Shown here one piece after another: positions 1 to 43,178 of a stretch of DNA of 56,664 nucleotides. The notes under the pieces are model-generated. The model saw nothing but the letters and a program-made list of their open reading frames with translations. It was not told where the DNA came from and searched no databases. Made by a program: the position numbers and the translations under genes. Source of the DNA: Eubacterium sp. (GTDB lineage: Bacteria > Bacillota > Clostridia > Lachnospirales > Lachnospiraceae); assembly GCA_017965495.1 (NCBI GenBank), contig JAGCPW010000061.1, positions 1 to 56,664 of the forward strand. The letters run 5' to 3'. The stretch's first letter is position 1. Each line of letters starts with the position of its first letter.

Positions 1-3000
1 AGGCTCAAAGACATACACAATCGATCTTCCTACATTTACATATGATGCAAGTGCAGGAAATGACAATATCGAGTTTGAACTTGATGGACTAGAGAAACAG
101 TCAATCTTTAAGGTAACTGAAATCACATTCACACCAACTGGATGGACAAAGGTTCCTAATAACACTGAGTTCGTACCTACTGGAACACCTTGGACACTTG
201 AAGCTACAAATGACCAGAGTACTCCAGGCGAAGAGCAGTGGGGCAACATGTCTTACAAGGTAACAGGAACAGCATCAAATGTTTCTGCTACTCAGATTAG
301 ACCAAACGCTACAGATGTAGGCGAACACTACTACTGGAACACAGCTACTTTGAAGAACTACTTAGCTACACTAGAAGATGGATGCTCATACACAGGTAGC
401 ATTACATTTAACTATGTAGCAGGCGATTCAGTTGCTGGTAAGACACCTGAACTAAGAACAGTTATTGCAGCTGCCGGAACAGGTGAAATGGATACAGCAG
501 TAACAGCTGGATCAAACACAATTTCAATAAGCGAATTCCTATATGATTCAACAGCTGCAAACAAGGATATCTTGTTCGAACTTGATGGACTAGAAGAAGG
601 CTCAGTCTTCCAGGTAACAGGAATCACATTCACTAAGTTGGATGCAGACTGGACAAACGTGAAGGGAGACGAAGCTAACCCAACTCCATGGACATTGACA
701 GCTAACTACAATGGTGTGGATCAATGGGGTCACATGAGATACAAACAGACAGGTACTGGAGTATCAAGTGTTGAAATCAAACCTATTAACACAGCAGTAG
801 GCGAGCACTACTACTGGAACAACGCAGTATTAGAAGACTATCTAAGCGATGGTGCAAATCTAACAGACGGCGTTGAATATGATGCAACAATCAATGTTCA
901 GTACACAGCAGGCGAAGCTGAAGCAGGTAAGACTCCTCAGCTAAGATACATCGTGGCTGCGGCTGAAACTGGTGAAGCAAACTTTGACTTTGACTCAGGC
1001 TCAGGCTCATACTCAATCGATCTTCCTACATTTACATATGATTCAAGTGCAGGAAATGACAATATCGAGTTTGAACTTGATGGACTAGAGAAACAGTCAA
1101 TCTTTAAGGTAACAAGTATTACATTCACACCAACTGGATGGGTACAGATACCTAAGAACACAGAATTCGTACCTACAAATACACCTTGGACTCTAGAGGC
1201 TAACAATGACCAGAGTACTCCAGGTGAAGAACAGTGGGGCGACATTTCATACAAGGTAACAGGAACTGGTGCAAACCTTTCTGATACAGAGATTAGACCG
1301 AACGCTACAGATGTAGGTGAGCACTACTACTGGAACACAGCAACACTTAAGAACTACTTAGCAACATTAGAAGACGGATGCTCATACACAGGTAGCATTA
1401 CAGTAAACTACACACCTGGTGAAGCAGTAGCAGGAAAGAACCCTGAACTAAGAACAGTTATCGAAGCTGCTAACACAGGTGAGAAGGATACAACATTAAC
1501 AAGCGGTTCAAACACAATCGCAATAGACGAGTTCCTATATGATTCAACAGCTGCAAACAAGGATATCATGTTTGAGCTTGATGGATTAGAGAAGGGCGGA
1601 ATCTTCCAGGTAACAGGCATCACATTCACAAAACAGGATGCAGACTGGACAAACGTTAAGGGCGATGAGGCTAACCCAACTCCATGGACATTGACAGCTA
1701 ACTATGATGGCGTTACTCAATGGGGTCACATGAGATACAAACAGACAGGTACTGGAGTATCAAGTGTTGAAATCAAACCTATTAACACAGCAGTAGGAGA
1801 GCACTTCTATTGGAACAATGCTGTTCTATATGATTACTTAAGCGATACAGCTAACTTAGAGGACGGCAAAGAATACGAAGGAACAATCACAGTTAAGTAC
1901 ACAGCAGGACAGGCTGAAGCAGGTAAGACTCCACAGTTGAGATATATCGTAGCTGCAGCTAGCACTGGTGAGGCTAACTTAGACCTAGACGAAGGTTCAA
2001 AGACATACACAATCGATCTTGGCAAGTTCATCTATGATGCAAGTGCAGGAAACGATGACATTGAATTTGAATTAGACGGACTAGAGAAACAATCAATCTT
2101 CCAGGTAACTGATATTACATTCGAGCCAACTGGATGGGAGAGAATTGAACAGAACGACGAAGTTGTACCAACAGATTCACAGGGCAACAGCACTCCATGG
2201 ACACTTGTAGCTACAAATGATGGAGCACAGCAATGGGGTGACATGTCAGTTAAGGTTGATGGTACAGCATCAGATGTATCAAGTACATCTATTAAGCTTA
2301 ACACTGCAGCAGAAGGCGAGCACTTCTACTGGAACACAGCAACACTTAAAGATTACTTGGCTACATTAGAAGACGGATGCTCATACACAGGAAGTATCGT
2401 TATTAACTATACTTCGGGCGAAGCTACAGCAGGTAAGACACCTGAACTTAGAACTGTAATCGCTGGAGCATTTGACGGTTCAAAAGATACAACATTAACA
2501 AACGGAACAAACACAATCGCTATTGATGAGTTTGTATACGATGCAGCTAAGGGCGAAGACGATATTTTATTCGAACTTACTGGATTAGAGAAAGGTTCAA
2601 TCTTCAATGTTGCTTCAATCACATTTACAAAACAGGATGCTGATTGGATTAACGTGAAGGGTGAAGAAGTGGACGTAGACCCATGGACTATCAATGCTAA
2701 CAATGATGGTAGCACAGCATGGGGTCACATGAGATACAAGAAGACAGGTACAGGAGTATCAAGCGTACAGATTAAGCCTATCAACACAGCAATGGGCAAC
2801 CACTACTACTGGAATACAGCCACACTAGAAGATTATTTAGCTAACCTAGTAGATGGTAGAGAGTACACTGCTACTATCACATTAAGCTACACAGCAGGTG
2901 AGGCTGAATCAGGTAAGACTCCACAGCTAAGATACATCATTGAAGCAGCTAATACTGGTGAAGCTAACTTGAACCTAAATAATGGTACAGGAACATACAC

Positions 3001-6000
3001 AATTGATATTCCTAAGTTCACTTATGAAGTTGAGGCTGGAAAAGATGATATCCAGTTCGAACTAGATTCATTAGAGAAGGGCTCAATCTTCCAGGTAACA
3101 GATATTACATTCACTCCAACAGGATGGGATGAGGTACCTATAAGTGCAGCAGGATTTAACCCAACAGGCACACCATGGACATTGAAACCAATCAATGATG
3201 GTGCAACTACTTGGGGTAGCATGTACTACGATATTGTTGGTGATCCAGCAGCTATCGGTAGCACAAAGATGAGAGTTAATAATCCAGGCGGAGAATACGA
3301 CTGGAACTTAGCTATCCTTGAGGATTACGCTAAGGATAATATGGAAGTTGGACATTCATACACAGCTACTATCGTATATGATTACGATGATGCTCCAGGT
3401 AAATCAGGAGCTGCTGGTGATGAATTGAAGGTTGCAATCGACAATAATGCTTCAATTATTGACGTTGGAACAACACCTACTGGATCATACACAACAGATA
3501 CATTCGAGTATACTGGAAGTGATGATGATGTAACATTCTTCCTAGATGGATTAACAAAGGGAAGCTCACTATCAGTTTCAAGTGTTACATTCACTAACCA
3601 GGATGGTGATTTTGAAAACGTACCTAACGATACAGACTTTACTCCAACAGGCACACCTTGGACATTGAAAGCAATCAATAATCCAAGCACAGGCCAGTAT
3701 GGTAAATTAATGTATCAGGTAGATGGTACACCTGCTTCAAATATTGGAAGTACTTTAATCAACTTAAAGAACACAGTAGGACAGCAAGAGACAGACGAGC
3801 ACGGAGATCCTGTTACTCCAGAGAATAGATGGTGGTGGACATCAGCATCATTGATGGGCTACAACGCAAATCTAGAACCATGGATGACATACACAGGATC
3901 AATCACATTAGAAATTTCTGAAGCTACAGCAGCAAACGCTAAACTATACGTTTACGTGGATGGCGAAGAGTATGGATTCCCACTAACTCAGGGAGAAAAT
4001 ACACTTGAAATTCCAGCATTCATATTCAAGGGTGCAAACAATGGTGGAACAAATGATGTTAAGTTCTTACTTGACGAACTACCAACAGGCGCTGACTTCA
4101 GAGTTACAGATATTACATTCACTAAGGATGGAAACTGGGTAGCAGTTCCTGATAACAGACCTGCAGATAACCAGTTCGAGATTACTAACGTTCCATTCTC
4201 ATACCAGTTCAGAAATGTGGACGGTACAATGGGAAGAACAGTTTCAGGTACTCGTGATTGGCAAATCTTTGCAGGACAGTGGCAAGGTGCTGGAGCAGTT
4301 CTATACTACGATCCAGACTTTACTGCAGCAGGTCAGCCTAAGGTTAGAATAGGTGCTGGTGAAAGATGGGATCCAGCATGTGCTCAAATTAAGCTACCTA
4401 ACCCAACAGAGGCATATAAAGAGTTAAGTGATTATACAAGTTACTACATGACATATGAGTTTACATCTACTGAGATGGGTACTGTTCATATTACACACGA
4501 AGGATATGAACCTGCTACACCTGAAAGAATAGATATTACAGCTGATATGTATGATGAGAGTGATGGACTATATCATGTTAAATATCAGAAGAGATTTACA
4601 AGATGTCCAGAGACAGACTACAGACCAGGAACAACTGAACCTAACAATCTATTCTTGAGTTTGACAGCTACTACATATGCAGCTGGTGGAGCTGTAGTAG
4701 AAGATGGTACAGCATTACCACTTGGTACAGTATTGTCAAACTTCAAGGTAGAGTATCAGAGAACTGATGAAGAAGTTTACACACTAGTTAATGATTGTAG
4801 ATTTGAAGGACACCAAGACTACACACCTATCGTTTCAAACGCTACTTTAGGCAAGGGTGTCCTACTTGGATACACTAACTCATACTTCAATGGATGGATG
4901 AGTTACCAGAATGGCGTTAACACATCAGGTGAAGATGCAATTGCTCAGGCAAGCATCAGACTAGATGAAACAAACGGAGACTTTGGCCCAACAACAGACA
5001 GTAGATGGGCAGAACACTTGCGAATACCTAACGATTACTTCTATGGTAATAGAGATGCAGGTGGAGACATCACAACAGTGGGAACAGATACAAATGGAAA
5101 TCCATTGAAGACTGGAAACCACTACAAGTTGAGATTCTACTATAATGTAGATCTAAGTGAGGCTGAAGGACCAATTGGCCAAGGCAAGGGTATTATCCTA
5201 GTTCAGCAGGGATTTGGAGAACCAGCAAGGTATCCAACTCACAGCGGACTAAACATGGCTAACGGAACTATCAACACTAAGAGTGGATATAATAGCCACA
5301 GTGATGATACATACGCAAAAGATGGCGGTATTGACTTTGTATACGACGATGATATTAGAACTATCGATCCTACAGAGCCAGGCAAAGAGTATCTAGGCCA
5401 TGTACAGTTAGACTTTAGTGACTTGCCATCAGGTGCTAAGATTACTGACATTAGTTGGGAATTCTATGCACCACAGTACAAAGTATTTATCGATGATGTT
5501 GAAGACGGCAGCGTGGTAGAAGGCGAAACATATACATTCCCAGATGATGATCCGGATGTAGTTGGATACTATGATGCGACAAATGACGTAACATATGAAC
5601 CAGGCGATACACTCACATTCTCAGACTTCTCAGAAGATATTTACGTAACAGCAATTAGAAGCTACACAGCTAAGGTTGTGGATGCTACTGATCCAACAGC
5701 AGTATACGCAGGACCAGTTGATGTACAAACTGGTGGCAAGTACACAGTTCCTGATGTACCTGGTATTGCATCTTACACATACAATGGTCAACCAGTTCAA
5801 CCAGGTGATGAGATTGACGTAACAGGTGACATTGTTGTATATGCTACTAAGGCAATAGGAACACATACAGTTACTATTAAGAATGCTGATGAAACAATTA
5901 CACTTGATACCATTGCCGTACCTGAGAATGAAACATTTACATTCCCAGCAGCTACAGGTAAATATGAAGGTGTTAAGGATTATGTAGCAGTTTCAGGAGC

Positions 6001-7771
6001 AACTGGAAAACAGAATCCTGGTGCTGAGATTAGCGTTCCAAATGATATGGTATATAAAGTAGAAATGCTTGATGAATATACTGTAACAATTGATGGAGTA
6101 CTAGTTGATACAGTTACTGAGGGTGATACATACACATTCCCAGCAGCTACTGGAGATTATGCAGGTGTTGATCACTTCGAAGATGTAAATGATCCTACTA
6201 AGACATATGATCCTGAAGAGACAGTAACTCCTACAGGAAATATTTCAGTTAAATCAGTTCACACTTACACAGTAACAATCGTTGGAACAGACGGAGTAAC
6301 TGTAATAGATACATTTGATGTTACTGAGGGAGATAACTTTACATTCCCAACAGCTACAGGAACATATGCTCATGTAAAAGACTTCAAGGGAATTGAAGGA
6401 ACATCTGAGACATATGATCCAGCGGATACAATTACTGACGTTGATAAGAGTATGACATTCCAGATTGAAATGTTACCTCAGTATACAATTACAATTGATG
6501 GAGTAGATGTTGCTACAGTACATGAGGGAGATACATACACATTCCCAACATCACCACAGTACAACAACGCAATCTACTTTATAGATGATAATGATGTTAA
6601 GTACCATACAGGTACTGGTTACACAATAACTGATGATGTTTCAGTTACATCAGTATATCTAGTAGAGATATATGATGAAGATGGACAGACATTGATGAAG
6701 TCTGATGAAATGAAGCTTGGAAGCACATACACATTCCCAGCTGCAACAGGAGACTTCGCACATGTTAAGGATTACGCTGGAAAGGAACCTACTACAGGAA
6801 CATACAATCCACAGGCTACTATGACTGTAGAAGGAAATGCTCAATATGTTGTTGAGTACATCTACTACAATGTATACATTGATGGTGTACAGCAGCAAGA
6901 GACTGTAAAAGAGGGAGAAGGATATACTACTCCTACAGATCTTCCAGGAGTAACTAAGTTTATTGATACAGCTACACAGATTGAATACAATCCAGGTGAA
7001 ACTGTACCAAACATTCAGGCAGATCTATATCTAACTACAGAGAGCATTCCAAATTACACATGGACAGTAGATGGTCAGCCAGGCGGCACTGTTCCAGCAG
7101 GAACAAAGATCACACTTCCTAACACTGCAGCTATCGGTTACTTACTAGAGTACACAGATGGCGAGGGACAAGGAGTGACAGATGACCTCTACAAGCCAGG
7201 TGCAGAGTACACAGTAGAAAGAAATGTAAACTTCATTTCAATCAACGAAGTAAGCATGGAACAGACTGATAAAGTATCAATGTACTATAAGGAAGGCGAA
7301 GACCAAAGAGGTATTAGATTCCTAAGTAAGTTGACAGTCAATGAAGAAAGTGATACAAATATATTAAGTTCAAACGCATTCCAGACAGGTATGCTAATAT
7401 GTGCAGAGGATACATACTACGATGTACTAGCTGAAGAGCTAACATTAGAAAAAGCTGATCAGCCATTTGTAGTAAATGCGCAGAACAATACTGACAAGAC
7501 AAAGAAATGGATTACAGGTCAACCTGGATCATTCGCTTGTGGTATAGTTAACATTAAGGATTACAACATCCCTAGAAACTTCTTATCAAGAGGATATGTA
7601 ATTGTTAATTACGCAGACGGTGATACAGAAGTTGTATACAGCGATGCATCCACTCCACGTAGTGTTAAATGGATTGCAACTCAGGTATTCAATGACAAGA
7701 CAGCTTACAACAAGCTAGTTGACTGGAAGAAAGCCATCGTTGATTACTGCAAGGACTTTGAGGAAGAATAG
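1..7771 (+). CDS. Giant secreted-type tandem-repeat protein, 5' end outside window
   Basis: The reading frame is open from base 2, so the gene starts before the window; at least 2590 residues are visible. Order: the end of one repeat, then eight repeats of about 161-171 residues (185-4157), each opening with TPWT or a close variant, carrying YYWN or WWWT in the first half and ending FQVTxITF; a unique core (about 4158-5476) with the motif ERWDPACAQIKL; nine short beta repeats (5477-7233) with the pattern YTVTIDG...EGDTYTFP; and a C-terminal domain of about 180 residues (RGIRFLS, GMLIC, RGYVIVNY). The long repeats resemble jelly-roll carbohydrate-binding modules and the short ones Listeria-Bacteroides (InlB B) repeats; both are inferences. 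No LPXTG motif, terminal membrane span or dockerin is visible. A 48-codon peptide gene follows 12 nt downstream. Likely a surface or secreted adhesin or glycan-binding protein; the precise role is unknown. Confidence 0.9.
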   Translation, partial: GSKTYTIDLPTFTYDASAGNDNIEFELDGLEKQSIFKVTEITFTPTGWTKVPNNTEFVPTGTPWTLEATNDQSTPGEEQWGNMSYKVTGTASNVSATQIRPNATDVGEHYYWNTATLKNYLATLEDGCSYTGSITFNYVAGDSVAGKTPELRTVIAAAGTGEMDTAVTAGSNTISISEFLYDSTAANKDILFELDGLEEGSVFQVTGITFTKLDADWTNVKGDEANPTPWTLTANYNGVDQWGHMRYKQTGTGVSSVEIKPINTAVGEHYYWNNAVLEDYLSDGANLTDGVEYDATINVQYTAGEAEAGKTPQLRYIVAAAETGEANFDFDSGSGSYSIDLPTFTYDSSAGNDNIEFELDGLEKQSIFKVTSITFTPTGWVQIPKNTEFVPTNTPWTLEANNDQSTPGEEQWGDISYKVTGTGANLSDTEIRPNATDVGEHYYWNTATLKNYLATLEDGCSYTGSITVNYTPGEAVAGKNPELRTVIEAANTGEKDTTLTSGSNTIAIDEFLYDSTAANKDIMFELDGLEKGGIFQVTGITFTKQDADWTNVKGDEANPTPWTLTANYDGVTQWGHMRYKQTGTGVSSVEIKPINTAVGEHFYWNNAVLYDYLSDTANLEDGKEYEGTITVKYTAGQAEAGKTPQLRYIVAAASTGEANLDLDEGSKTYTIDLGKFIYDASAGNDDIEFELDGLEKQSIFQVTDITFEPTGWERIEQNDEVVPTDSQGNSTPWTLVATNDGAQQWGDMSVKVDGTASDVSSTSIKLNTAAEGEHFYWNTATLKDYLATLEDGCSYTGSIVINYTSGEATAGKTPELRTVIAGAFDGSKDTTLTNGTNTIAIDEFVYDAAKGEDDILFELTGLEKGSIFNVASITFTKQDADWINVKGEEVDVDPWTINANNDGSTAWGHMRYKKTGTGVSSVQIKPINTAMGNHYYWNTATLEDYLANLVDGREYTATITLSYTAGEAESGKTPQLRYIIEAANTGEANLNLNNGTGTYTIDIPKFTYEVEAGKDDIQFELDSLEKGSIFQVTDITFTPTGWDEVPISAAGFNPTGTPWTLKPINDGATTWGSMYYDIVGDPAAIGSTKMRVNNPGGEYDWNLAILEDYAKDNMEVGHSYTATIVYDYDDAPGKSGAAGDELKVAIDNNASIIDVGTTPTGSYTTDTFEYTGSDDDVTFFLDGLTKGSSLSVSSVTFTNQDGDFENVPNDTDFTPTGTPWTLKAINNPSTGQYGKLMYQVDGTPASNIGSTLINLKNTVGQQETDEHGDPVTPENRWWWTSASLMGYNANLEPWMTYTGSITLEISEATAANAKLYVYVDGEEYGFPLTQGENTLEIPAFIFKGANNGGTNDVKFLLDELPTGADFRVTDITFTKDGNWVAVPDNRPADNQFEITNVPFSYQFRNVDGTMGRTVSGTRDWQIFAGQWQGAGAVLYYDPDFTAAGQPKVRIGAGERWDPACAQIKLPNPTEAYKELSDYTSYYMTYEFTSTEMGTVHITHEGYEPATPERIDITADMYDESDGLYHVKYQKRFTRCPETDYRPGTTEPNNLFLSLTATTYAAGGAVVEDGTALPLGTVLSNFKVEYQRTDEEVYTLVNDCRFEGHQDYTPIVSNATLGKGVLLGYTNSYFNGWMSYQNGVNTSGEDAIAQASIRLDETNGDFGPTTDSRWAEHLRIPNDYFYGNRDAGGDITTVGTDTNGNPLKTGNHYKLRFYYNVDLSEAEGPIGQGKGIILVQQGFGEPARYPTHSGLNMANGTINTKSGYNSHSDDTYAKDGGIDFVYDDDIRTIDPTEPGKEYLGHVQLDFSDLPSGAKITDISWEFYAPQYKVFIDDVEDGSVVEGETYTFPDDDPDVVGYYDATNDVTYEPGDTLTFSDFSEDIYVTAIRSYTAKVVDATDPTAVYAGPVDVQTGGKYTVPDVPGIASYTYNGQPVQPGDEIDVTGDIVVYATKAIGTHTVTIKNADETITLDTIAVPENETFTFPAATGKYEGVKDYVAVSGATGKQNPGAEISVPNDMVYKVEMLDEYTVTIDGVLVDTVTEGDTYTFPAATGDYAGVDHFEDVNDPTKTYDPEETVTPTGNISVKSVHTYTVTIVGTDGVTVIDTFDVTEGDNFTFPTATGTYAHVKDFKGIEGTSETYDPADTITDVDKSMTFQIEMLPQYTITIDGVDVATVHEGDTYTFPTSPQYNNAIYFIDDNDVKYHTGTGYTITDDVSVTSVYLVEIYDEDGQTLMKSDEMKLGSTYTFPAATGDFAHVKDYAGKEPTTGTYNPQATMTVEGNAQYVVEYIYYNVYIDGVQQQETVKEGEGYTTPTDLPGVTKFIDTATQIEYNPGETVPNIQADLYLTTESIPNYTWTVDGQPGGTVPAGTKITLPNTAAIGYLLEYTDGEGQGVTDDLYKPGAEYTVERNVNFISINEVSMEQTDKVSMYYKEGEDQRGIRFLSKLTVNEESDTNILSSNAFQTGMLICAEDTYYDVLAEELTLEKADQPFVVNAQNNTDKTKKWITGQPGSFACGIVNIKDYNIPRNFLSRGYVIVNYADGDTEVVYSDASTPRSVKWIATQVFNDKTAYNKLVDWKKAIVDYCKDFEEE
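185..4157 (+). repeat. Eight tandem long repeats in 996-bp two-unit super-repeats
   Basis: Units begin at 185, 683, 1181, 1679, 2192, 2678, 3170 and 3653, each at a TPW codon triplet or close variant. The first three spacings are exactly 498 bp. Odd and even units differ (A type with EDGCSYTGS, B type with GHMRYK), so the duplicated block is an A+B pair of 996 bp. The string agagaaac occurs at 91, 1087 and 2083, exactly 996 bp apart. The last two units are diverged. The tail of a further B unit fills bases 1-184. Confidence 0.92.
5477..7233 (+). repeat. Nine short beta repeats (InlB B-repeat-like)
   Basis: Nine protein repeats of about 60-72 residues lie in tandem. Each starts with a Y-T-V-T-I-D-G-like strand, then EG(D/E)TYTFP, then a YxPGxxV-like segment and a closing strand. 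This matches the general pattern of Listeria-Bacteroides/InlB B repeats, which act as elongated stalks on cell-surface proteins. The family assignment is from pattern memory only. Four related units are present in the neighbouring giant protein. Confidence 0.75.
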
Positions 7772-7783
7772 GAGGATAGAGGC

Positions 7784-7930
7784 ATGAAAGATTTATATAT
7801 TAAACCAGAAGTAGACTTCAAAGAGTTTGATATTTTAGACGTTATTAAGACTAGTCCATCGAAAACTGAAGACCCTGGAGAACCTACAGCAGCTAACGGC
7901 GATGACGATGATTGGTCAGATTGGTACTAA
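7784..7930 (+). CDS. 48-aa acidic peptide paired with giant repeat protein (copy 1)
   Basis: A 48-codon gene starts 12 nt after the stop of the giant repeat protein. Its Shine-Dalgarno sequence TAGGAGG (7769-7775) contains the upstream TAG stop, which points to translational coupling. The peptide has an N-terminal half MKxLYxxPEV...EFDxxDVIxTSP and an acidic C-terminal half ending DDDDWSDWY. It has no signal peptide or hydrophobic stretch, and no Cys. A homologous 48-codon gene lies at 13100 after the second giant gene, and this conservation is the main evidence that both are real. Small Clostridia ORFs with a PE...DVIxTS pattern are familiar to me, but I know no assigned function. Possibilities are a peptide-modification precursor, a signal peptide of a sensing system, or a partner of the giant protein. 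Confidence 0.82.
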   Translation: MKDLYIKPEVDFKEFDILDVIKTSPSKTEDPGEPTAANGDDDDWSDWY

Positions 7931-7959
7931 GATATTAGATCAAGTAAGTTAAATTCAAT

Positions 7960-7993
7960 AACCCTCGGACAAGTAGTCCGGGGGTTATTTTTA
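7960..7993 (+). terminator. Rho-independent terminator after peptide copy 1
   Basis: An 11-bp stem (7960-7970 with 7976-7986, one G-T pair) with loop AAGTA is followed by ttattttta. It closes the first giant gene plus peptide unit. Confidence 0.9.
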
Positions 7994-8086
7994 TGCACTG
8001 TAAGAAGAGCGTTGGTATTTGAAAAAATATAAAAATATAAAACAAAACCCCCGTTCAAAAAATGATACCGTTTTGAATGTATACAC

Positions 8087-8115
8087 TTTCATAAAATATG
8101 GATACTGTATATAAT
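8087..8115 (+). promoter_or_regulatory. Candidate promoter of second giant gene
   Basis: TATAAT at 8110-8115 is a perfect -10 box. The -35 match 17 bp upstream (TTTCAT, 8087-8092) is weak, so activator dependence or another -35 is possible. An AATGATAC half-site lies at 8061-8068. Confidence 0.4.
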
Positions 8116-8204
8116 TATTATACTAAGATGGTATAACTGTCTTTATGTCTTTATGCCATCTTAAATTACTAACGTATTTTTTCATTAACGAGAGGAGAAA
8201 AACA

Positions 8205-11200
8205 ATGAAGAAGCAATTGAGAAAAGCGCTAGCTATTCTTTGTGCTGTTGCATTTGCCTTTACTGGCATCACATACAGCCCAGCAACAGTTAGTGCAGCA
8301 GACGAAGGATGGTTCGATGCTACTTTGGATTGGGGTCATTATATGACTGACAAGACTACAGCAGGCGACCAAAAAGGTATTTGGGATTACTGCGGAGGAC
8401 AAGCTCCAAAAGCACAGTACCAAAATGGTGACCAAATAGAAGGCTTTACTTGGAATACTACAGCATCAGGAGAGGCTATTTGGTTTGAGACGGTTGATTT
8501 AAAAGAACTTAACTGTGTTAGCGAAGGTGGTCAGATGGTAAAACCACAGCCAGGTGTTAAGTATAAACTTAACTTAACTATGGATTATTCTAGCACAAAG
8601 ACTACTAAAACCGCTTTACAGGTATGGGTAAAGAACGGTGAAGCACCAGCTATGGTTGAAAAGCATTTAGATGCAAGTAATACTAACAATCAATTAGTAA
8701 TTGAAGATGCCGAAATTATGCCAGAGGATGACAATCCACTTGTTTTCCACTTTGGTATTGGTGTTAAGTCCAATTATTCTGGTTGGGGTGGAATGGGTAT
8801 TCCACATACTGTAACTATATCTGACTTTACTTTAGAGAGAGCAGATGATTTTGAGCCATGTATTATGGGCAGTGATGGAACATTTGTACCAGAAGGCACT
8901 CCATGGGCTGTTGAAACACAGTACAATGGAACAGACCTATGGGGCAAGATGAGCTATAAAGTAGAGGGCACACCTTCAAATGTTGCTTCTACATATTTAA
9001 GAGTAGATACACCAGCGCATGATGATGATTCAGAGGGTGTTGATCAAGATAACCCTGCAGCTTGGTGGTGGTGGAATTCTGCTAAACTACCAGAATATCT
9101 ATCAGAAGTTGGTTTGACAACAGGCAAATTCTACAAAGGAACAATGAAAGTTGAGTATACTTCTGCAGGTACTTCATATTCTCCAACATTGAGAACTATC
9201 TTTGGCGGAACTACTATGATAAACAACTTGCAAGAAGGCTCAAACACTATTACGATAGATGAATTCCTATATGAAGGAACTCAAAACAATATTGAATTTA
9301 ACTTAGACCTACTAGAAAAGGGTGGAGTTATGCGCGTGACTGAGATTAATCTCGAGCCAGCAGATGATTTCATTCCTATTGAAAAGAATGTAAAATTCAA
9401 GACAGATCCTAATTCACCATGGACATTTGAAGCACAGAATAATGCTTCAACTTCTTGGGGTGCTATAAGTTACATCCAAGGTACACCAGCTTCAGATCCA
9501 ACATCTACTACATTTAGAGTAGATACACCAGCGCATGATACTGCAGAAGAAGGTGTTGATCAAGATAATCCAACAGCATGGTGGTGGTGGAATTCAGCAA
9601 GTCTTATTAATTATTTGAAAGATGTTGCTGACTTGCAAGTAGGATATAAGTATAAGGGAACTATTGTTTTCAATTATACACGTCCAACTGGCAAATCTGG
9701 GGCAGATGAGTATGATACTCCTCAGTTAAGAATGATTGAAAACGGAAACGTTACAATTATAGATTTAGAAGAAGGAGATAACACAATTAACATTGGTGGA
9801 GACGAAGGTTTCGCATATGATCCTAATTATCCATCAATCGAGTTTAACCTTGACCTATTAGACAAGGGTGGTATTCTCCAAGCTAAGAGTATTGATTTCG
9901 TTAGAGCAGATAACTTTGAACCAGTTACTCCTAACGTTGAAGGTGGATTTGTGCCAGCAAATACACCTTGGAACATTAAAGTTCAGAATAATGCAGACAC
10001 TACATGGGGTCAGATGAGTTATGCAATTGATGGAACTCCATCACTTGTTAGCTCAACAACAATGAGAATTGACAATCCAGCACACGATGACGATACAGTC
10101 ACACCTGAAGTGGATCAAGAAGATCCAGATGCATGGTGGTGGTGGAATAGTGCCTCATTGCCAAATTATTTGAAGAATAACCTTAATGATGGAAGAACTT
10201 ACACAGGTTCAATGGTTATTAAGTATACAGCACCTACATCTCCATCAGCAGCATACACACCAAAATTAAGATATATCTTAAATGGTGAAGTGCATGTTGT
10301 TACATTACAACCAGGTGATAATACAATTCCTATTGAATCATTTGATTATTCAGAAATGTATCCAAATCTTGAGTTCAACGTGGATCTATTAGAAAAAGGT
10401 TCACTATTCCAGGTAAAGAGCATTGACTTTACACAGGCTCCTGGAAATTGGATGAGAGTTCCAGATAATGATGAAGAAGGTGTTACTATTCCAGTAACTT
10501 ATGATTCTTCAGTGAAACCTCAAGAAGAAGTAACACACTACTGGAATATATTTGCAGGCATCTGGGAAGGTCATGGCGCAGCATTGTACTATGATAATGA
10601 CCTATCAGATCCTTATGATCCATTAAAGGTTAAAATTGGTGCTGGTGAAAGATGGGATCCAGCATGTGCTCAGATTAAACTTACAAATGAAGATGCATAT
10701 CAAGAATTAGAAGAGTACACAAACTACTATATGACTTATTCGTTCACTTCAACTGAGAAGGGAACATTACATATCAACCATGAAGGTTATACACCAACTA
10801 AGCTAACAAGAATTGATATTACAGATGATATGTACGATCCAAACGATGGACTATATCATGTTGAGTTTAAGAAAATATTCACATATCTTCCTGATAGGGA
10901 TGATTTGAATTTAACAATGTTCTTAACACCTACTACTTATGTTTATAACAAAGAGACAGGTGAGACAGAAGTAGAGATGGATGGCGAATACTTGCCAGCC
11001 GGAACTATTATTGCAAACCACGAGATTACATACTCAAGACAGGATGAAGATGGTTGGACTCTAGTAACAGATAGTAGAGATCCAGATCATCAGAACTATG
11101 ATGATATAGTATCTGATGAATATCAGAATCCAATATTACAGGCATATACTAATTCATTTGCTTACTCACAAGTTCTTTATTCTGAGGTTGACAATGGTAG

Positions 11201-13088
11201 AATGAGTTATTTGGCAAATCAGAATCCTGATGGAGTAGATGATATTGCTAAGATGGGTATCAGATTAGATTCTACAGCATATTCAAATGTTCCTGGTTAC
11301 ACATTTGATAACCAGTGGGCTAATCACCTACGTATTCCAAATGACTACTTCTATGCTAGACCAGATACAAATGGTAACTACTTAGAAAATGGAAACCGTT
11401 ACATACTAAGATTCTATATTAATTCTACTGCGGCTACAGCTGAGAATATGGGTCTAATAATGGTTAGACAGGGATATGATGGAAACCAGTGGTTTAGATA
11501 TCCTATTTCAAAGGGATTGAATCTAGTTAACGGAACACTTAAAGCTAAGAAGAGCGGAAGAGATACAGACCCATATATTGTAAATCCAGATTACACTAAG
11601 ACAGGTGGTATCGAATTCGTATATAATGACGGCTTTACTACAGATCAAGATTTCGTACAGTTTGACTTTAGTGAATTCCCACAGGGAACAACTATTAATG
11701 ATATTTCTTGGGAATTTGAGGCAGCAGGATATAATGTATTCCTAGATGGTAGTAGTACACCAGATAACGACGAACCTATTATGGAGAATGATACATACAC
11801 ATTCCCTACAGTAGAAGGTGTTATCGGATACCAGGATGATTACGATCCACAGAGAGTTTACAGACCAGGCGAGCAGATTCCTTATGATCAATTTACAGAT
11901 GACATTTATGCAACATCTATCACAGGATATAAGGTAACTATCGTGGATACAGATGGAAATCCAATTAAGACGGATTATGTAAATCCTGGAGATCCATATG
12001 ACTTCCCAACAGTGGATGATCCTGATTTCAAGGATTTCAAGGAATACAAAGATGACGATAATACATATCACAATGGAGATACTATTCCAGCGGTAAACAA
12101 AGACTACACATTTGTAGCCGTACCAAAGGATAACTACATTGTTACAGTTAAAACTCCTGAAGGAGAAACTCTAAGAACTACACCAGTTGAGGAGGGTGGA
12201 ACATACACATTCCCAAGTGATATTGAAGGTGTTCAGGATTATACATATAATGGACAGACATATCAGAAGGGTGATACAATGGGACCAATTAACGAGAACA
12301 GAGATGTTATCGCTAACCCAGTACCAGTAACTCAATATCATGTTTATATTGATGGCGTAGCACAACAACCTGCTATCGAAGACGGTGGAAGTTATACATT
12401 CCCAAGCGGACAAGATGCTGCTAAGATTGGATATATCTCAGTTAACGGTGGAGAAGTATTAGATCCAGGTTCAACAATTGTAGAAATCCACGAAGACAAG
12501 TATTATCTATCAATTGATGATATTACTCTTACACCTCAAATGGGTGCGTCAATGTTACTAAATCAAGCAGAAGTGAACCCAAGAGGAATTGGCTTTGGTG
12601 CAGACTTCTCAATTTACGACAAAAATGGTAATATAATTTCATATAAGAATTACAAAAATGTTTACAAATCAGAGGCATTCCAGCTTGGAACATTGATTAC
12701 ACCATATAACAACTTCGTAACTGATTTCGATGAGACTCTTGATTTGGAAAAAGCAGCGACTGAAGCAGGCGAGAAATATATTAGAAAAATTGAGAATGAT
12801 TACACATTCTGCGATGATGATAATCCAACAGAAGACTTTGCTACATATCGTGCAGGTATTGTAAATCTAAATGATTACAATATTCCTAGAGACTTTATAG
12901 CAAGATCATATGGATTTGTTAAGACAAAGAGTGGAGCAGTAACAGATGTTACATATGCTAACTATTCAGATATTAGATCGATTAAGACAGTTGCTACAAA
13001 TCTAATGAAGAATCCAAATTGGAAGGAAGTTTATCCACAAGCTTGGAAGCAAGAAATCATTGAGTACTGCGCAGCATTTGAAGGATAA
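8205..13088 (+). CDS. Giant secreted tandem-repeat protein, complete (1627 aa)
   Basis: The ATG at 8205 is chosen over an upstream in-frame ATG at 8145 because AGAGGAG (8191-8197) is correctly spaced and the product then begins with a clean signal peptide (MKKQLRKALAIL..., predicted cut after VSA, residue 31). Domains: a unique N-terminal region (about 32-230), three long repeats of 165-183 residues opening with TPW or SPW and containing WWWWN (8898-10470), the shared core with ERWDPACAQIKL (to about 11729), four short beta repeats (11730-12510) and the shared C-terminal domain ending IIEYCAAFEG. It is a shorter paralogue of the protein ending at 7771. No LPXTG, SLH or dockerin anchor is visible. 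It is exported by Sec; binding of a glycan or host surface is inferred from architecture only. A homologous 48-codon peptide gene follows. Confidence 0.93.
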   Translation: MKKQLRKALAILCAVAFAFTGITYSPATVSAADEGWFDATLDWGHYMTDKTTAGDQKGIWDYCGGQAPKAQYQNGDQIEGFTWNTTASGEAIWFETVDLKELNCVSEGGQMVKPQPGVKYKLNLTMDYSSTKTTKTALQVWVKNGEAPAMVEKHLDASNTNNQLVIEDAEIMPEDDNPLVFHFGIGVKSNYSGWGGMGIPHTVTISDFTLERADDFEPCIMGSDGTFVPEGTPWAVETQYNGTDLWGKMSYKVEGTPSNVASTYLRVDTPAHDDDSEGVDQDNPAAWWWWNSAKLPEYLSEVGLTTGKFYKGTMKVEYTSAGTSYSPTLRTIFGGTTMINNLQEGSNTITIDEFLYEGTQNNIEFNLDLLEKGGVMRVTEINLEPADDFIPIEKNVKFKTDPNSPWTFEAQNNASTSWGAISYIQGTPASDPTSTTFRVDTPAHDTAEEGVDQDNPTAWWWWNSASLINYLKDVADLQVGYKYKGTIVFNYTRPTGKSGADEYDTPQLRMIENGNVTIIDLEEGDNTINIGGDEGFAYDPNYPSIEFNLDLLDKGGILQAKSIDFVRADNFEPVTPNVEGGFVPANTPWNIKVQNNADTTWGQMSYAIDGTPSLVSSTTMRIDNPAHDDDTVTPEVDQEDPDAWWWWNSASLPNYLKNNLNDGRTYTGSMVIKYTAPTSPSAAYTPKLRYILNGEVHVVTLQPGDNTIPIESFDYSEMYPNLEFNVDLLEKGSLFQVKSIDFTQAPGNWMRVPDNDEEGVTIPVTYDSSVKPQEEVTHYWNIFAGIWEGHGAALYYDNDLSDPYDPLKVKIGAGERWDPACAQIKLTNEDAYQELEEYTNYYMTYSFTSTEKGTLHINHEGYTPTKLTRIDITDDMYDPNDGLYHVEFKKIFTYLPDRDDLNLTMFLTPTTYVYNKETGETEVEMDGEYLPAGTIIANHEITYSRQDEDGWTLVTDSRDPDHQNYDDIVSDEYQNPILQAYTNSFAYSQVLYSEVDNGRMSYLANQNPDGVDDIAKMGIRLDSTAYSNVPGYTFDNQWANHLRIPNDYFYARPDTNGNYLENGNRYILRFYINSTAATAENMGLIMVRQGYDGNQWFRYPISKGLNLVNGTLKAKKSGRDTDPYIVNPDYTKTGGIEFVYNDGFTTDQDFVQFDFSEFPQGTTINDISWEFEAAGYNVFLDGSSTPDNDEPIMENDTYTFPTVEGVIGYQDDYDPQRVYRPGEQIPYDQFTDDIYATSITGYKVTIVDTDGNPIKTDYVNPGDPYDFPTVDDPDFKDFKEYKDDDNTYHNGDTIPAVNKDYTFVAVPKDNYIVTVKTPEGETLRTTPVEEGGTYTFPSDIEGVQDYTYNGQTYQKGDTMGPINENRDVIANPVPVTQYHVYIDGVAQQPAIEDGGSYTFPSGQDAAKIGYISVNGGEVLDPGSTIVEIHEDKYYLSIDDITLTPQMGASMLLNQAEVNPRGIGFGADFSIYDKNGNIISYKNYKNVYKSEAFQLGTLITPYNNFVTDFDETLDLEKAATEAGEKYIRKIENDYTFCDDDNPTEDFATYRAGIVNLNDYNIPRDFIARSYGFVKTKSGAVTDVTYANYSDIRSIKTVATNLMKNPNWKEVYPQAWKQEIIEYCAAFEG
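8898..10470 (+). repeat. Three tandem long repeats of the second giant protein
   Basis: Units start at 8898, 9414 and 9963, at codons for TPW or SPW, giving lengths of 516, 549 and about 508 bp. They share PAHD(D/T)...VDQ(D/E)(D/N)P and WWWWN segments and the closing strand seen in the first giant protein. They are more diverged from one another than the repeats at 185-2191. Confidence 0.88.
11730..12510 (+). repeat. Four short beta repeats of the second giant protein
   Basis: Four units of about 60-70 residues begin Y(N/K/I/H)V and contain (N/G)(D/G)TYTFP-like segments. They correspond to the nine units at 5477-7233. Confidence 0.7.
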
Positions 13089-13099
13089 GGAGGTAAGGT

Positions 13100-13246
13100 A
13101 TGATGAAAGAATTATATTTAAGTCCTGAAGTTGAATTGGACGAATTTGACAAAAAAGATATTATAGTTACAAGCCCACCAAACGAAGGTGAACCAGTTGT
13201 TGCTAATGACGGTGAACCAGGAAAAGAGTGGACAGGTAATGCTTAA
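13100..13246 (+). CDS. 48-aa acidic peptide paired with giant repeat protein (copy 2)
   Basis: This gene starts with two adjacent ATG codons (13100, 13103). The Shine-Dalgarno sequence AAGGAGGT (13087-13094) overlaps the TAA stop of the upstream giant gene, the same layout as copy 1. The product shares with copy 1 the positions MK(D/E)LY, PEV, EFD, D(V/I)I, TSP, GEP and AN, plus an acidic tail with Trp. It has no signal peptide, Cys or hydrophobic segment. A terminator follows at once, so giant gene and peptide form a two-gene transcription unit. The function is unknown; conservation next to both giant genes argues that it acts with them. Confidence 0.82.
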   Translation: MMKELYLSPEVELDEFDKKDIIVTSPPNEGEPVVANDGEPGKEWTGNA

Positions 13247-13270
13247 TCCACTAGAGCGCTAGTATAAAGA

Positions 13271-13304
13271 AAAAGGCTCAGGTTTTACACCTGAGTCTTT
13301 TCTT
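13271..13304 (+). terminator. Rho-independent terminator after peptide copy 2
   Basis: A 9-bp stem (13275-13283 with 13289-13297) lies between an upstream A-run and TCTTTTCTTATTTT. It ends the second cassette. Confidence 0.9.
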
Positions 13305-35417: not shown

Positions 35418-35553
35418 GAAAGTCGCTGTTTATGCGGCCTTTTATTTTTGCGCCCAAAAACCCCTATTTTAAAGGGAATTCGGGCAAAAAACTAATAAAA
35501 TTAAGTATAAATAGCAGAAACTTTATTTAATTAACTTTAAAGGAGAAATGTCA

Positions 35554-38500
35554 ATGGAGAAGAACAGAATTCGTCCTGTGAAAGCAGGAAAAGGAATGAG
35601 AATGAGCTATTCTAGACAAAAAGATGTGCTAGACATTCCTAATTTGATCGAAGTTCAGAGAGATTCATATGACTGGTTCTGCACAGAAGGCTTAAGAGAA
35701 GTTCTTGATAGTGTATCTCCAATCGAGAGTCACGATCAAAACTTAAGCTTAGAGTTTATTGACTTTGAAGTGTGTGAAGACGAGAAGAAGTACTCTATCG
35801 AAGAGTGTAAAGAAAGAGATGCTACTTACTCAGCTCCACTTCGTGTTAAAGTGCGCCTTCATAATAAGGAAACAGGTGAAATCACTGAACACACAATTTT
35901 TATGGGTGACTTACCACTCATGACAAAGACAGGTACTTTCGTAATTAACGGTGCTGAGCGTGTAATCGTTTCTCAGCTAGTTAGATCACCAGGTATCTAC
36001 TTTGACGTAGAAAACGATAAGATTGGTAAAGAACTTTACTCATCACAGATTATACCTATTAGAGGTGCGTGGTTAGAATATGAAACAGATTCTAACGACA
36101 TCTTTAACGTGCGTGTAGACAGAGCTAGAAAAGTTCCTGTAACTACACTTGTTAGAGCGCTAGGTGTTTCTACTGATGAAGAAATCCTAGAGATGTTTGG
36201 CGATGAGGCAAAAATCAAAGCTACATTAGAAAAGGATAACACTGAGGACTATGAGAGTGGTCTTAAAGAAGTGTATGCAAAGATTCGTCCAGGCGAGCCT
36301 TTCAGTAAGGAAAGTGCTGAGAACATTATTGGAAATATGTTCTTTGACGATCACAGATATGATTTAGCTAGAGTTGGTAGATATAAATACAATAAGAAGC
36401 TTGCTTACAAGAATCGTATTGTAGGATTTACTTTGGCTGAGTCAGTAGTAGATCAGAGCACTGGCGAAATTATTGCTAGAAAAGGAAAGACTGTGGATGA
36501 GGAACTTGCTATCAAGATTCAGAACGCTGCAGTTCCTTCAGTTACAGTTGAAATAGAAGTTCAAGGCGAGAACGGACCAGAGAAGTCTACAGAAAAAGTT
36601 ATGTCTAACATGGCTGTAGATATACAAAACTATGTGAAGTTTGACGCTTCTGAATATGGTATTAATGAGGATGTTTATTATCCAGCATTAGCTGAGTTGA
36701 TGGCAGAAAACAAAAAGGTTGGTGACCTTAAAGAAGCCATCAAGAAAAACACAGCTAAATTGATGCCAAAGCATATAACAAAAGAAGATATTTTTGCATC
36801 TATTAACTATTGTATGAATATCGAAAAAGGTATTGGTACTACAGATGACATCGACCACTTAGGAAACAGACGTATCCGTGCGGTTGGTGAACTACTTCAG
36901 AACCAGTATCGTATCGGTTTCTCAAGAATGGAAAGAGTCGTTAAAGAAAGAATGACTAACCAGGATTTAGAAACTGTTTCTCCACAGACATTAATTAATA
37001 TTAAACCTGTAACAGCTGCTGTTAAGGAATTCTTCGGAAGTTCACAGTTGTCACAGTTTATGGACCAAAACAACCCACTTGGTGAGTTAACACATAAGAG
37101 ACGTCTATCAGCCCTAGGTCCTGGTGGCCTTTCAAGAGACCGTGCCGGATTTGAGGTTCGTGACGTTCACTATACTCACTACGGAAGAATGTGTCCTATC
37201 GAGACACCTGAAGGACCAAACATCGGTCTTATCAACTCATTTGCTACATACGCTAGATTAAATGAGTACGGTTTTGTTGAGGCTCCATATAGAGTAGTAG
37301 ATAAAAAGAATAAGAATAACCCTGTAGTTACAGATGAAGTTGTTTACCTTGCAGCAGACGAGGAAGATAACTACACAGTAGCACAGGCTAACGAACCTTT
37401 GGACGACAAAGGACACTTCGTTAACAATAACGTATCAGGTCGTTACAGAGAGGAAATTTCACAGTTCCCTAAATCAAGAATTGATTTGATGGACGTGTCA
37501 CCTAAGATGGTATTCTCTATTGCCACATCAATGATTCCTTTCTTACAGAACGACGATGCCAACCGTGCGCTAATGGGATCAAACATGCAGCGTCAGGCAG
37601 TGCCTCTAATGACTACTGAAGCTCCAGTAATCGGTACAGGTATGGAAGCAAAGGCTGCTGTAGACTCAGGTGTGTGCGTAGTGGCAGAACATCCTGGTGA
37701 AGTTATCAGATCTTCATCAGAAGAAATCACTATCAAGAATAGTGATAACAAAGAAGAACAGACATACAAACTACTTAAGTTTGCTAGAAGTAACCAGTCA
37801 AACTGCTACAACCAGAGACCAATCGTTTCAATTGGTGATAAGGTAGAGGCCGGCGAAGTTATTGCCGATGGTGCATCTACATCAAACGGTGAGATTGCCC
37901 TAGGTAAGAACCCACTAATCGGTTTCATGACTTGGGAAGGTTACAACTACGAGGATGCTGTACTTCTAAGTGAAAGACTAGTTCAGGATGATGTTTACAC
38001 ATCTATTCATATAGAAGAATACGAAACTGAAGCTAGAGATACAAAGCTTGGACCAGAAGAAATCACAAACGATGTAGCTGGTGTGGGTGAAGAAGCTAGA
38101 AAGAACTTGGATGAGAGAGGAATCATCAGAATTGGTGCTGAAGTAAGAGCCGGTGATATCCTTGTTGGTAAGGTTACTCCTAAGGGAGAGACTGAGCTTA
38201 CTCCAGAAGAAAGACTTCTTCGTGCTATCTTTGGTGAGAAGGCTAGAGAGGTTAGAGATACATCTCTTAAAGTGCCTCACGGTCAGTCAGGTATCGTAGT
38301 GGATACAAAAGTATTTGAGAGAAAGGCTGGAGACGAACTTCCACCTGGAGTGAACGAGTCAGTCCGCATCTATGTTGCTCAGAAGAGAAAGATCTCTGTT
38401 GGTGATAAGATGGCTGGTAGACACGGTAACAAGGGTGTAGTTTCTCGTGTACTCCCTGTAGAAGATATGCCATTCCTACCAAACGGTCGTCCACTTGATA

Positions 38501-39384
38501 TCGTACTTAACCCATTGGGCGTGCCTTCACGTATGAACATTGGACAGGTACTTGAGATTCACTTGTCACTTGCTGCTAAGGTGCTAGGATTTAATATCGC
38601 AACACCAGTATTTGACGGAGCAGACGAGAACGACATTATGGATACTCTAGAGCTTGCTAATGATTATGCAAACATGGAATTCAAGGACTTCAAATCTAAG
38701 TACAATGGTGTGCTTGTAAAAGAAGTTATGAAATACTTAGAGGATAACCAAGCTCACAGAGATGAGTGGAAAGGTGTTCCTATTAGAAGAGATGGTAAGG
38801 TTAGACTTCGTGATGGTAGAACTGGTGATTACTTTGATAATCCAGTTACAATCGGTTTCATGCACTACTTGAAACTCCACCACTTAGTAGACGATAAGAT
38901 TCATGCTCGTTCAACTGGTCCTTACTCACTTGTTACTCAGCAGCCACTTGGTGGTAAAGCTCAGTTCGGTGGACAGAGATTTGGTGAGATGGAAGTTTGG
39001 GCACTTGAAGCTTACGGTGCATCTTACACACTTCAAGAAATCCTTACAGTTAAGTCTGATGATGTGGTTGGTCGTGTTAAGACATACGAAGCTATTATCA
39101 ATGGCAAGAGTATTCCACAGGCTGGTATTCCAGAGTCCTTCAAGGTACTTATCAAGGAACTTCAGTCACTATCACTTGACGTTAAGGTACTAGACGAGAA
39201 CGACAAAGAAGTTGAGATTAGAGAGAGCCAGGATTACGGCGATACATCTTTCAACTCAATTCTAAACAGCGATAAAAACTACGGCAAAAAAGAAACTATG
39301 AGTGATATGCAAAAAGCAGGATTCAGCGCAGACGAGGGCGTAGATAAAAACCTTGATGTGATGGATGCTGAGGATGCAGAATAA
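35554..39384 (+). CDS. rpoB: RNA polymerase beta subunit
   Basis: The second ATG (35554) is chosen: the Shine-Dalgarno AAGGAG (35540-35545) is 8 nt from it but only 2 nt from the ATG at 35548. 1276 residues, a usual size for Clostridia. The rifampicin region ([34 protein letters not shown], in part) has no classic resistance substitution at the Asp, His or Ser positions. Also visible are the [14 protein letters not shown] and [15 protein letters not shown] motifs of the catalytic core. It is followed after 17 nt by rpoC. Confidence 0.98.
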
Positions 39385-39401
39385 GGAAGGAGGAGATTAA
39401 A

Positions 39402-42400: not shown

Positions 42401-43178
42401 TCGTGTGGAAGAGTTGTTTGAGGCTAGAAAGCCTAAGGGTGTTGCTATCGTAACTGAAATAGCTGGTAAGGCTAAAGTTCACAAAGACGGTAACAAGACA
42501 GAAGTAGAAGTTACAAATAAAGAAACTGGTGAGAGCAAGACTTACCTAATTCCATTTGGAATGAGACTTGTTGACAACCTAACAAGAACAAATCTTGAGG
42601 CTGGTGACAAACTAACAGAAGGTAACATCAACCCTCACGACATTCTTGCAATCAAGGATGTAAGAGCAGTTCAAGATTACATCTTATCAGAAGTAATCAA
42701 CGTATATAACTCACAGGGTGTAGGTATTAACGACAAGCACTTAGAGATTATCGTACGTCAGATGCTTAAGAAGATTACTGTGGAAGATGCAGGCGATTCA
42801 GATTTTGTACCAGGTACAAATGTAGAGGCTATTGAGTTTAACGAAGTTAACGAACAACTTAAGGCTGAAGGAAAGACTCCTGCCACAGGAACACAAGTAC
42901 TTCTTGGTATCACAAAGGCTTCACTTGCTACAGATTCATTCTTAGCAGCAGCTTCATTCCAGGAGACTACAAAGAACCTAACAGAAGCAGCTATCAAGGG
43001 AAGAATCGATCCGCTTAACGGAATCAAAGAAAACGTACTTATCGGTAAGTTGATTCCAGCTGGTACAGGTATGAAGATTTACAATAGAGTAAAACTAAAT
43101 ACAGACGAAACTATCGCTGAGGCTGTTCAAGAAGCAGTGGAAGCACCAGCAGAGGAAAAGGCTGAAGAGGCAGAATAA
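39402..43178 (+). CDS. rpoC: RNA polymerase beta' subunit
   Basis: 1258 residues. The first zinc site is CHCG...CDRCG (residues about 64-87), the catalytic magnesium site is [12 protein letters not shown] (about 451-462), and the second zinc site is in [13 protein letters not shown]. The trigger-loop region ([16 protein letters not shown]) is normal. The protein ends in a short acidic tail ([11 protein letters not shown]). The TAA stop shares one base with the start of the next gene. Confidence 0.98.

What the first reader, a model, noticed from the sequence alone, without database searches (positions are those of the whole stretch)
7769..13304. Duplicated cassette: giant secreted repeat protein plus a 48-codon acidic peptide
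Both giant genes are followed, 12 and 11 nt after the stop, by homologous 48-codon genes sharing MK(D/E)LY, PEV, EFD, D(V/I)I, TSP, GEP and AN positions. In both, the giant gene's stop codon is part of the peptide's Shine-Dalgarno (TAGGAGG, AAGGAGG), and a strong terminator follows. The peptides have no export signal while the giant proteins are exported. Two independent copies with the same layout suggest a functional pair: a peptide that is modified, secreted or sensed, or one that controls the giant protein. I know of no described system with this form.
Basis: partly seen in the sequence, partly recalled or inferred. Interest (0 to 1): 0.85.

Follow-up and report, generated by a model that had tools for sequence, protein, structure and literature searches.

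The report
RiPP-like peptides paired with glycan-binding giants
Each of two giant surface proteins of a gut bacterium is followed by a tiny gene that looks like the raw material of a chemically modified, exported peptide, an arrangement that recurs in related bacteria and ties a recently described peptide chemistry to cell-surface proteins.

Summary
Two homologous peptide genes (about 48 codons) lie 12 and 11 nt behind two giant genes; stop codons merge with Shine-Dalgarno sites and terminators follow. The peptides are under purifying selection and occur throughout the genus (19 of 23 genomes clearly, 3 weakly). Relatives occur in other Lachnospiraceae, mostly right behind large genes: 62 of 73 distinct peptides, against 198 of 587 control genes.

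They look like RiPP precursors: conserved leader (Y..P......F...D[VI]I.TS), variable acidic core, and Ser at Tyr+19 in 67 of 74, never Thr. They track PqqD-type RRE proteins (24 of 26 peptide-positive genomes against 76 of 273). [quoted passage not shown] The window has none of these genes but the genome does, so maturation would be in trans.

The giants carry CBM4-like repeats and an Ig/FN3-like C-terminal domain. In 6 of 14 stalk-peptide pairs a membrane-anchored protein ends like the peptide, hinting at a shared docking tag. Product and function are unproven.

The parts
1..7771 (+). Giant surface protein 1, 5' truncated by the contig end; seven CBM4-like repeats starting in the window, further repeats (visible in the sequence, fold not tested), Ig/FN3-like C-terminal domain
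   Evidence: ORF; contig start; repeats; CBM4-like model (model of a giant 2 repeat, giant 1 repeats in its alignment)
7172..7768 (+). C-terminal domain of giant 1
   Evidence: alignment A4; genus search (match 7178-7759)
7769..7775 (+). Stop codon merged with Shine-Dalgarno (TAGGAGG)
   Evidence: sequence
7784..7930 (+). Peptide 1 (48 aa), RiPP-precursor-like: leader about residues 1-21/24 with Y5, P8, F15, D19; conserved Ser24; acidic core
7957..7989 (+). Intrinsic terminator hairpin
   Evidence: fold -22.8 kcal/mol, z -7.3, (not flagged by the simple scan)
8205..13088 (+). Giant surface protein 2 (about 1627 aa) with N-terminal signal sequence, three CBM4-like repeats, C-terminal domain
   Evidence: start site inferred
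8901..10445 (+). Three CBM4-like repeats of giant 2
12489..13085 (+). C-terminal domain of giant 2 (Ig/FN3-like sandwich plus C-terminal helices)
13100..13246 (+). Peptide 2 (47-48 aa), homologous to peptide 1; conserved Ser is residue 24 counted from Met 13103
13267..13304 (+). Intrinsic terminator hairpin
   Evidence: z -6.2

Best explanation
The two peptides are precursors of RRE-dependent, LPP-like RiPPs, transcribed with the surface protein upstream and matured in trans. Proposed route: (1) ribosomes reach the peptide gene by coupling at the giant's stop (layout shown; coupling inferred). (2) A PqqD-type RRE encoded elsewhere binds the Y..P leader (motif and RRE genes shown; binding inferred). 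(3) An HprK-like kinase phosphorylates the conserved Ser24, which after cleavage behind D-[VI]-I would be core position 3, as Ser3 is in LPP (conservation shown; reaction and site inferred). (4) A SipW/archaeal-type signal peptidase removes the leader and an MsbA-like ABC transporter exports the core, perhaps after a nucleotidyltransferase step (genes shown; reactions inferred). (5) The acidic core, in this genus mostly ending in W[ST] plus 3-4 residues, acts at the cell surface beside the giant CBM4-type glycan-binding protein (inferred).
For: RREs: PqqD in 24 of 26 peptide-positive and 76 of 273 peptide-negative family genomes (Fisher p 8.6e-11); the two without are matches inside 432- and 418-aa frames. 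Own genome: three stand-alone RREs (PF05402 E 3e-15 to 8e-17, nearest NCBIfam models lasso and Geo PqqD), two HprK-like kinases (ScmC 4e-10 and 4e-7), a sigpep_I_arch peptidase (5e-7), an MsbA-related ABC, five NTP_transf_5 matches, two of them partial. Ten of the 20 regions fetched around RREs hold a peptide within 10 kb of HprK, RRE and signal peptidase relatives, seven of the ten also an NTP_transf_5 relative. Signal peptidase Ser in 12 of 13, His and an Asp in 13 of 13. Ser at Tyr+19 in 67 of 74 distinct peptides, Thr in none; LppK phosphorylated Ser3 but not S3T or S3Y (PMC13381572, section 7). Amino-acid changes fall less in the leader than in the core in the three peptide-1 comparisons with G000 and in the six peptide-2 comparisons without G021.
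Against: The window peptides are not next to any maturation gene (no relative of the kinase, RRE, peptidase or NTP transferase in the window); which of three RREs would serve them is unknown. The leader differs from the published LPP consensus (YxxPxVLxHQxIxFETxxS): here Tyr-Phe spacing is 10, not 13, and Ser is at +19, not +18. NCBIfam hits of kinase, peptidase and RRE are below the curated cut-offs (the Pfam RRE hits are above theirs). At L048, L049 and L109 such leaders sit beside what look like radical SAM genes (judged by eye), so the leader type alone does not fix the chemistry. PqqD is also common without a detected peptide (76 of 273). The G021 copy of peptide 2 has as many leader as core changes. 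Nothing here shows translation, phosphorylation, cleavage or export.
Confidence: 0.72

Rival explanations
1. The peptide is an unmodified cytoplasmic partner of the giant protein (secretion chaperone, folding or expression checkpoint), made at its 3' end through translational coupling.
For: Tight layout: of the 62 peptides behind a large ORF, 57 lie 71 nt or less behind it; no export signal seen in the sequence; purifying selection.
Against: Does not explain the Y..P leader, the conserved Ser, the statistical link to RREs, or cassettes in the same loci as RRE-kinase-peptidase genes. Upstream proteins have several different C-terminal ends. 25 of 67 C-terminal-domain matches lack a detected peptide.
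Confidence: 0.13
2. The peptides are lasso peptide precursors of the paeninodin kind.
For: [Y/W]xxP leader, PqqD RREs with hits to lasso PqqD models; HprK-like kinase, nucleotidyltransferase and transporter genes occur in such clusters (PMC13381572).
Against: The lasso leader peptidase domain PF13471 is over its cut-off in 0 of 23 genus genomes; one (G015) has a sub-threshold match with a stop inside. No Gly follows the leader of the window peptides; many ruminal Lachnospiraceae lasso precursors shown in PMC7533575 (passages) have WxxP leaders ending just before Gly.
Confidence: 0.04
3. The peptides are processed through the RRE but by another chemistry (for example a radical SAM enzyme, or glycosyl/nucleotidyl transfer onto Ser), the kinase being incidental.
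For: L048, L049 and L109 pair such leaders with radical SAM-like genes (by eye), though L109 also has HprK and NTP_transf_5 relatives. NTP_transf_5 in 23 of 23 genus genomes.
Against: An HprK relative lies with RRE and signal peptidase in the cassette loci of eight other genera (G124, G284, G258, G034, G166, G071, G280, G329) and two genus members (G018, G021); window peptides have no Cys.
Confidence: 0.1

Closest known systems
Linear polyphosphorylated peptides (LPP), lpp gene clusters of Bacilli (PMC13381572; abstract and sections 4, 6, 7, 11, 12 read)
   Same: YxxP leader; stand-alone RRE; HprK-like kinase; archaeal-type signal peptidase I; NTP transferase; MsbA-like transporter; kinase-RRE genes next to capsule-type genes in L102, L108 and L117 (gene names by eye); Ser near core position 3.
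   Different: Precursor genes lie one by one behind giant surface-protein genes, often far from the enzymes; leader spacing differs; found here in Lachnospiraceae and other Clostridia; in some genomes a stalk protein shares the peptide's C-terminus. The paper's main text has no occurrence of 'surface protein', 'Lachnospir' or 'Clostrid'.
Paeninodin-like lasso peptides
   Same: RRE family, [Y/W]xxP leader, HprK-like kinase, nucleotidyltransferase.
   Different: No lasso leader peptidase domain over cut-off in the genus; no ring-forming Gly1 in the window peptides; YxxP rather than WxxP.
CBM family 4 carbohydrate-binding modules
   Different: 11% identity; Pfam finds no domain over cut-off; arranged as long tandem arrays.

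Membership tests
LPP RiPPs | Stand-alone RRE gene | tested here: met
   Three stand-alone PF05402 proteins in G000; near peptides in other genomes
LPP RiPPs | HprK-like kinase adjacent to RRE | tested here: met
   G000 C7 and C26 (hits below curated cut-offs, P-loop GTGKST); 18 of 20 fetched RRE regions hold a relative of these kinases
LPP RiPPs | Archaeal/SipW-type signal peptidase next to RRE | tested here: met
   G000 C11; TIGR02228 5e-7, below cut-off; Ser 12 of 13, His and an Asp 13 of 13; which Asp is catalytic was not tested
LPP RiPPs | MsbA-like transporter and NTP transferase | tested here: met
   ABC at G000 C7 beside RRE; NTP_transf_5 five matches in G000 on other contigs; in the same region as kinase and RRE in 7 of the 10 cassette loci
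LPP RiPPs | Precursor leader consensus YxxPxVLxHQxIxFETxxS | tested here: inconclusive
   YxxP and Ser met; HQ absent, spacing shifted
LPP RiPPs | Precursor encoded in the maturation gene cluster | tested here: not met
   Not met for the window copies (window: no match); met for family members in G018, G021, G258 and others
LPP RiPPs | Multiple phosphates on the core Ser and RRE-dependent leader cleavage | not testable with these tools
   Needs expression and mass spectrometry
LPP RiPPs | RRE falls in the LPP clade of the RRE tree | not tested
   No LppB sequence was fetched
Lasso peptides | Leader peptidase B2 (PF13471) | tested here: not met
   0 of 23 genus genomes over cut-off; one sub-threshold match
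Lasso peptides | Macrolactam cyclase | not tested
   No cyclase search was run
CBM4 (giant-protein repeats) | CBM4 beta-sandwich fold | tested here: met
CBM4 (giant-protein repeats) | Glycan binding | not testable with these tools
   Needs a binding assay

The most novel reading that the evidence does not exclude
A surface-display system in which each giant glycan-binding protein comes with its own phosphorylated, exported peptide that serves as its docking or anchoring partner. The peptide would be linked to the envelope through its modified Ser and carry a C-terminal tag (such as W[ST]G[LY][YF]) that a domain of the giant protein recognises; membrane-anchored stalk proteins ending in the same tag (EYELPFIP, DEDGWT.IIVKP, FGPLI, FGPII, IDWF, GWG in the genomes where it is seen) would offer a second docking site. 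This would be a RiPP used as structural adaptor rather than as toxin or signal.
Probability: 0.17. Interest if true: 0.9.

Novelty: new variant of a known kind. Interest (0 to 1): 0.72.

Why it matters
The biological role of LPPs and paeninodins is stated to be unknown (PMC13381572, discussion). Finding LPP-like precursors one by one behind large surface proteins, with 17 profile matches in one 2-Mb genome (G305), gives this chemistry a concrete partner and a testable role at the cell surface. It also gives an identity to small ORFs for which Pfam and NCBIfam returned nothing. The C-terminal tags shared with stalk proteins in some genomes give a direct entry to a receptor.

Tried and rejected
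Pfam and NCBIfam on the two peptides: nothing at E up to 1. Lasso reading rejected on PF13471. A protein with PqqD-like N-terminus at G000 C62 looks like a SCIFF radical SAM maturase next to a Cys-rich peptide: set aside.

Exact tag WTGL[YF] plus stop in the genus: 28 matches; 22 are the peptides themselves, 5 are short chance frames, 1 (L229) is cut at a contig edge; none of the 27 resolved is a stalk protein. So tag sharing is not seen for the tag commonest in the genus; the tags of the window peptides (WSDWY, WTGNA) were not searched. C-terminal likeness of stalk and peptide: 14 pairs from 12 genomes scored. Strong in 5 pairs (G029 twice, G021, G008, one of two in G034) and, with a second G018 peptide put in place of its first, in a sixth; that is 5 of 12 genomes. 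The pairs were picked by eye before scoring, and the 698 comparison C-termini include the stalks themselves and their relatives: in the six cases 1, 2, 3, 2, 4 and 5 of 698 reach the score, most of them such stalks, but one unrelated C-terminus in the G021 case. The scores are descriptive.
Full report
WHAT IS THERE. The window is a whole contig (G000:C55) of a 1.66-Mb, 97-contig genome. Named relatives found with a peptide alignment (21 loci) are mostly uncultured Lachnospiraceae or 'Eubacterium sp.', several with isolate names that I recall as rumen sets (RUG, RUI). Peptide genes at 7784-7930 and 13100-13246 follow giant ORFs at 12 and 11 nt; stop and Shine-Dalgarno overlap, and a stable hairpin with a T-run follows each. 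The two peptides align at 50% identity with 22 invariant columns. A third peptide of the same kind lies at G000:C87:2934-3113 behind another large gene with the same C-terminal domain.

CONSERVATION. A single-peptide search of 60 relatives gave 24 with matches at E up to 1, the strong ones in the same genus. With a 31-peptide profile, 22 of 23 genus genomes match at E up to 0.01: 19 clearly and 3 (G006, G012, G022) only by weak partial matches; G013 has none. In an even sample of the family 26 of 299 match. dN/dS is 0.06-0.10 for peptide 1 where dS is not zero, and 0.07-0.40 for peptide 2. Changes fall mainly in the core, except in the G021 copy of peptide 2, whose leader also differs. In the genus, 42 of 67 matches to the C-terminal domain are followed on the same strand, 14-69 nt later, by a detected peptide (two of these partial, at contig ends); 25 are not. 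Of these 25, 19 were read downstream and none had a Y..P ORF. Over the loci held, 62 of 73 distinct peptides have a same-strand ORF of at least 250 aa (or at least 100 aa running off the locus) ending within 300 nt upstream; 4 have a smaller one, 3 none, 4 lie at an edge. One spurious pattern hit was dropped, 74 to 73. Not every large upstream gene is a surface protein: two peptides follow what looks like trmD (L174, L186, by eye).

THE RIPP LINK. In some genomes the peptide lies beside PqqD-like proteins. PqqD (E up to 0.001) was found in 30 of 30 peptide-bearing genomes given: 19 of the 22 positives plus 11 further genus members. In the even family sample, PqqD at E up to 1e-8 is in 100 of 299: 24 of 26 peptide-positive and 76 of 273 peptide-negative genomes (p 8.6e-11). 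The two exceptions are matches inside 432- and 418-aa frames. I fetched 20 regions around RREs. Ten (L104-L108, L110-L113, L115; two genus members and eight other genera) contain a peptide within 10 kb of relatives of the G000 kinase, RRE and signal peptidase; in seven of them (L105-L108, L111-L113) there is also a relative of the nucleotidyltransferase, in L105 in one reading frame with the peptidase. L109 has peptide, RRE, kinase and nucleotidyltransferase relatives plus a radical SAM-like gene. In the other nine no peptide was detected nearby; they include L100 (RRE and peptidase, at the start of a contig), L101 and L102 (kinase, RRE, ABC) of G000, and L103, a SCIFF-like locus. Clearest cases: G018 and G021 (same genus: surface proteins, two peptides, lipoprotein, kinase, RRE, signal peptidase, ribosomal operon) and G258 (two surface protein-peptide cassettes, then kinase, RRE, peptidase, ABC, nucleotidyltransferase). 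The window itself holds no relative of kinase, RRE, peptidase or nucleotidyltransferase.

HOW IT MOST LIKELY WORKS. This set of genes is the core reported for LPP RiPPs (PMC13381572): LppB presents a YxxP leader, LppK puts several phosphates on core Ser3 (S3T and S3Y are not phosphorylated), LppS cleaves the leader with RRE help. Here Y5 is invariant and P8, D19 and S24 are at least 90% conserved in 31 diverse peptides. Among 74 pattern-collected peptides (the pattern fixes Y/F..P and biases the D-V-I stretch, not the Ser), position Tyr+19 is Ser in 67 and Thr in none, although the two preceding positions are often Thr (47 of 74 each). If cleavage falls behind D-[VI]-I the Ser is core residue 3, as in LPP; the site is inferred. 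The signal peptidases keep the Ser (12 of 13; one is cut short by my start choice), His and an Asp (13 of 13). The lasso leader-peptidase domain is over cut-off in 0 of 23 genus genomes; NTP_transf_5 is in 23 of 23. Shown: genes, motifs, statistics. Inferred: all reactions, export, and the role.

WHAT THE CORE MAY DO. Cores are net acidic in 70 of 74; in the window genus most end in W[ST] plus 3-4 residues, over all loci 37 of 74 have [WFY][ST] near the end. In some genomes a single-TM or lipoprotein 'stalk' next to a peptide ends in the same letters: EYELPFIP and DEDGWT.IIVKP (G029), FGPLI (G021), FGPII (G018), IDWF (G008; same in G004 and G010), GWG (G034). Eight of the 14 scored pairs show no such likeness, and for the WTGLY tag of the genus no stalk was found. 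Peptide and stalk may thus present one tag to one extracellular partner, possibly the giant proteins; this is the bold reading, not a result.

LITERATURE. PMC13381572: abstract and sections 4, 6, 7, 11, 12 read, plus one term search. PMC7533575 and PMC12710340: passages only. Six searches listed no paper linking LPP-like precursors to surface proteins in an open-access library. Gene names for neighbours such as capsule-type genes, ribosomal proteins, TrmD, SCIFF and radical SAM are given by eye and were not searched.

Noticed in passing
L048:1444-1725, L049:1444-1725, L109:5883-7420: YxxP-type peptides next to radical SAM-like and PqqD genes in G330, G085 and G166 (radical SAM by eye); L109 also has HprK and NTP_transf_5 relatives.
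   Followed up: partly
L037, L057, L064-L074 (G305): One 2-Mb genome with 17 profile matches; 14 contexts viewed, each behind a surface protein-like gene; a kinase-RRE-peptidase set lies at L114.
   Followed up: partly
L205:5983-6162, L207:1975-2118 and 2162-2293, L208:823-969: The same surface protein plus YxxP peptide layout in uncultured Clostridia MAGs (isolates named Lapin); L207 has two convergent cassettes.
   Followed up: no
L174 (peptide near 2019-2168 on the - strand), L186:2937-3074: Peptides with F..P leaders behind a TrmD-like gene and before a gene for a very acidic protein; no surface protein upstream.
   Followed up: no
L026 (G021 second copy): Leader region of the G021 orthologue of peptide 2 is divergent while the core end is conserved, as if recombined.
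   Followed up: no
G000:C62, L103:4726-6320: SCIFF-like Cys-rich peptide and a radical SAM-like gene with a PqqD match at its N-terminus (names by eye).
   Followed up: no
window 35548-43178: Two long adjacent ORFs of 1278 and 1258 aa; from size and order they look like rpoB and rpoC (recalled, not searched).
   Followed up: no
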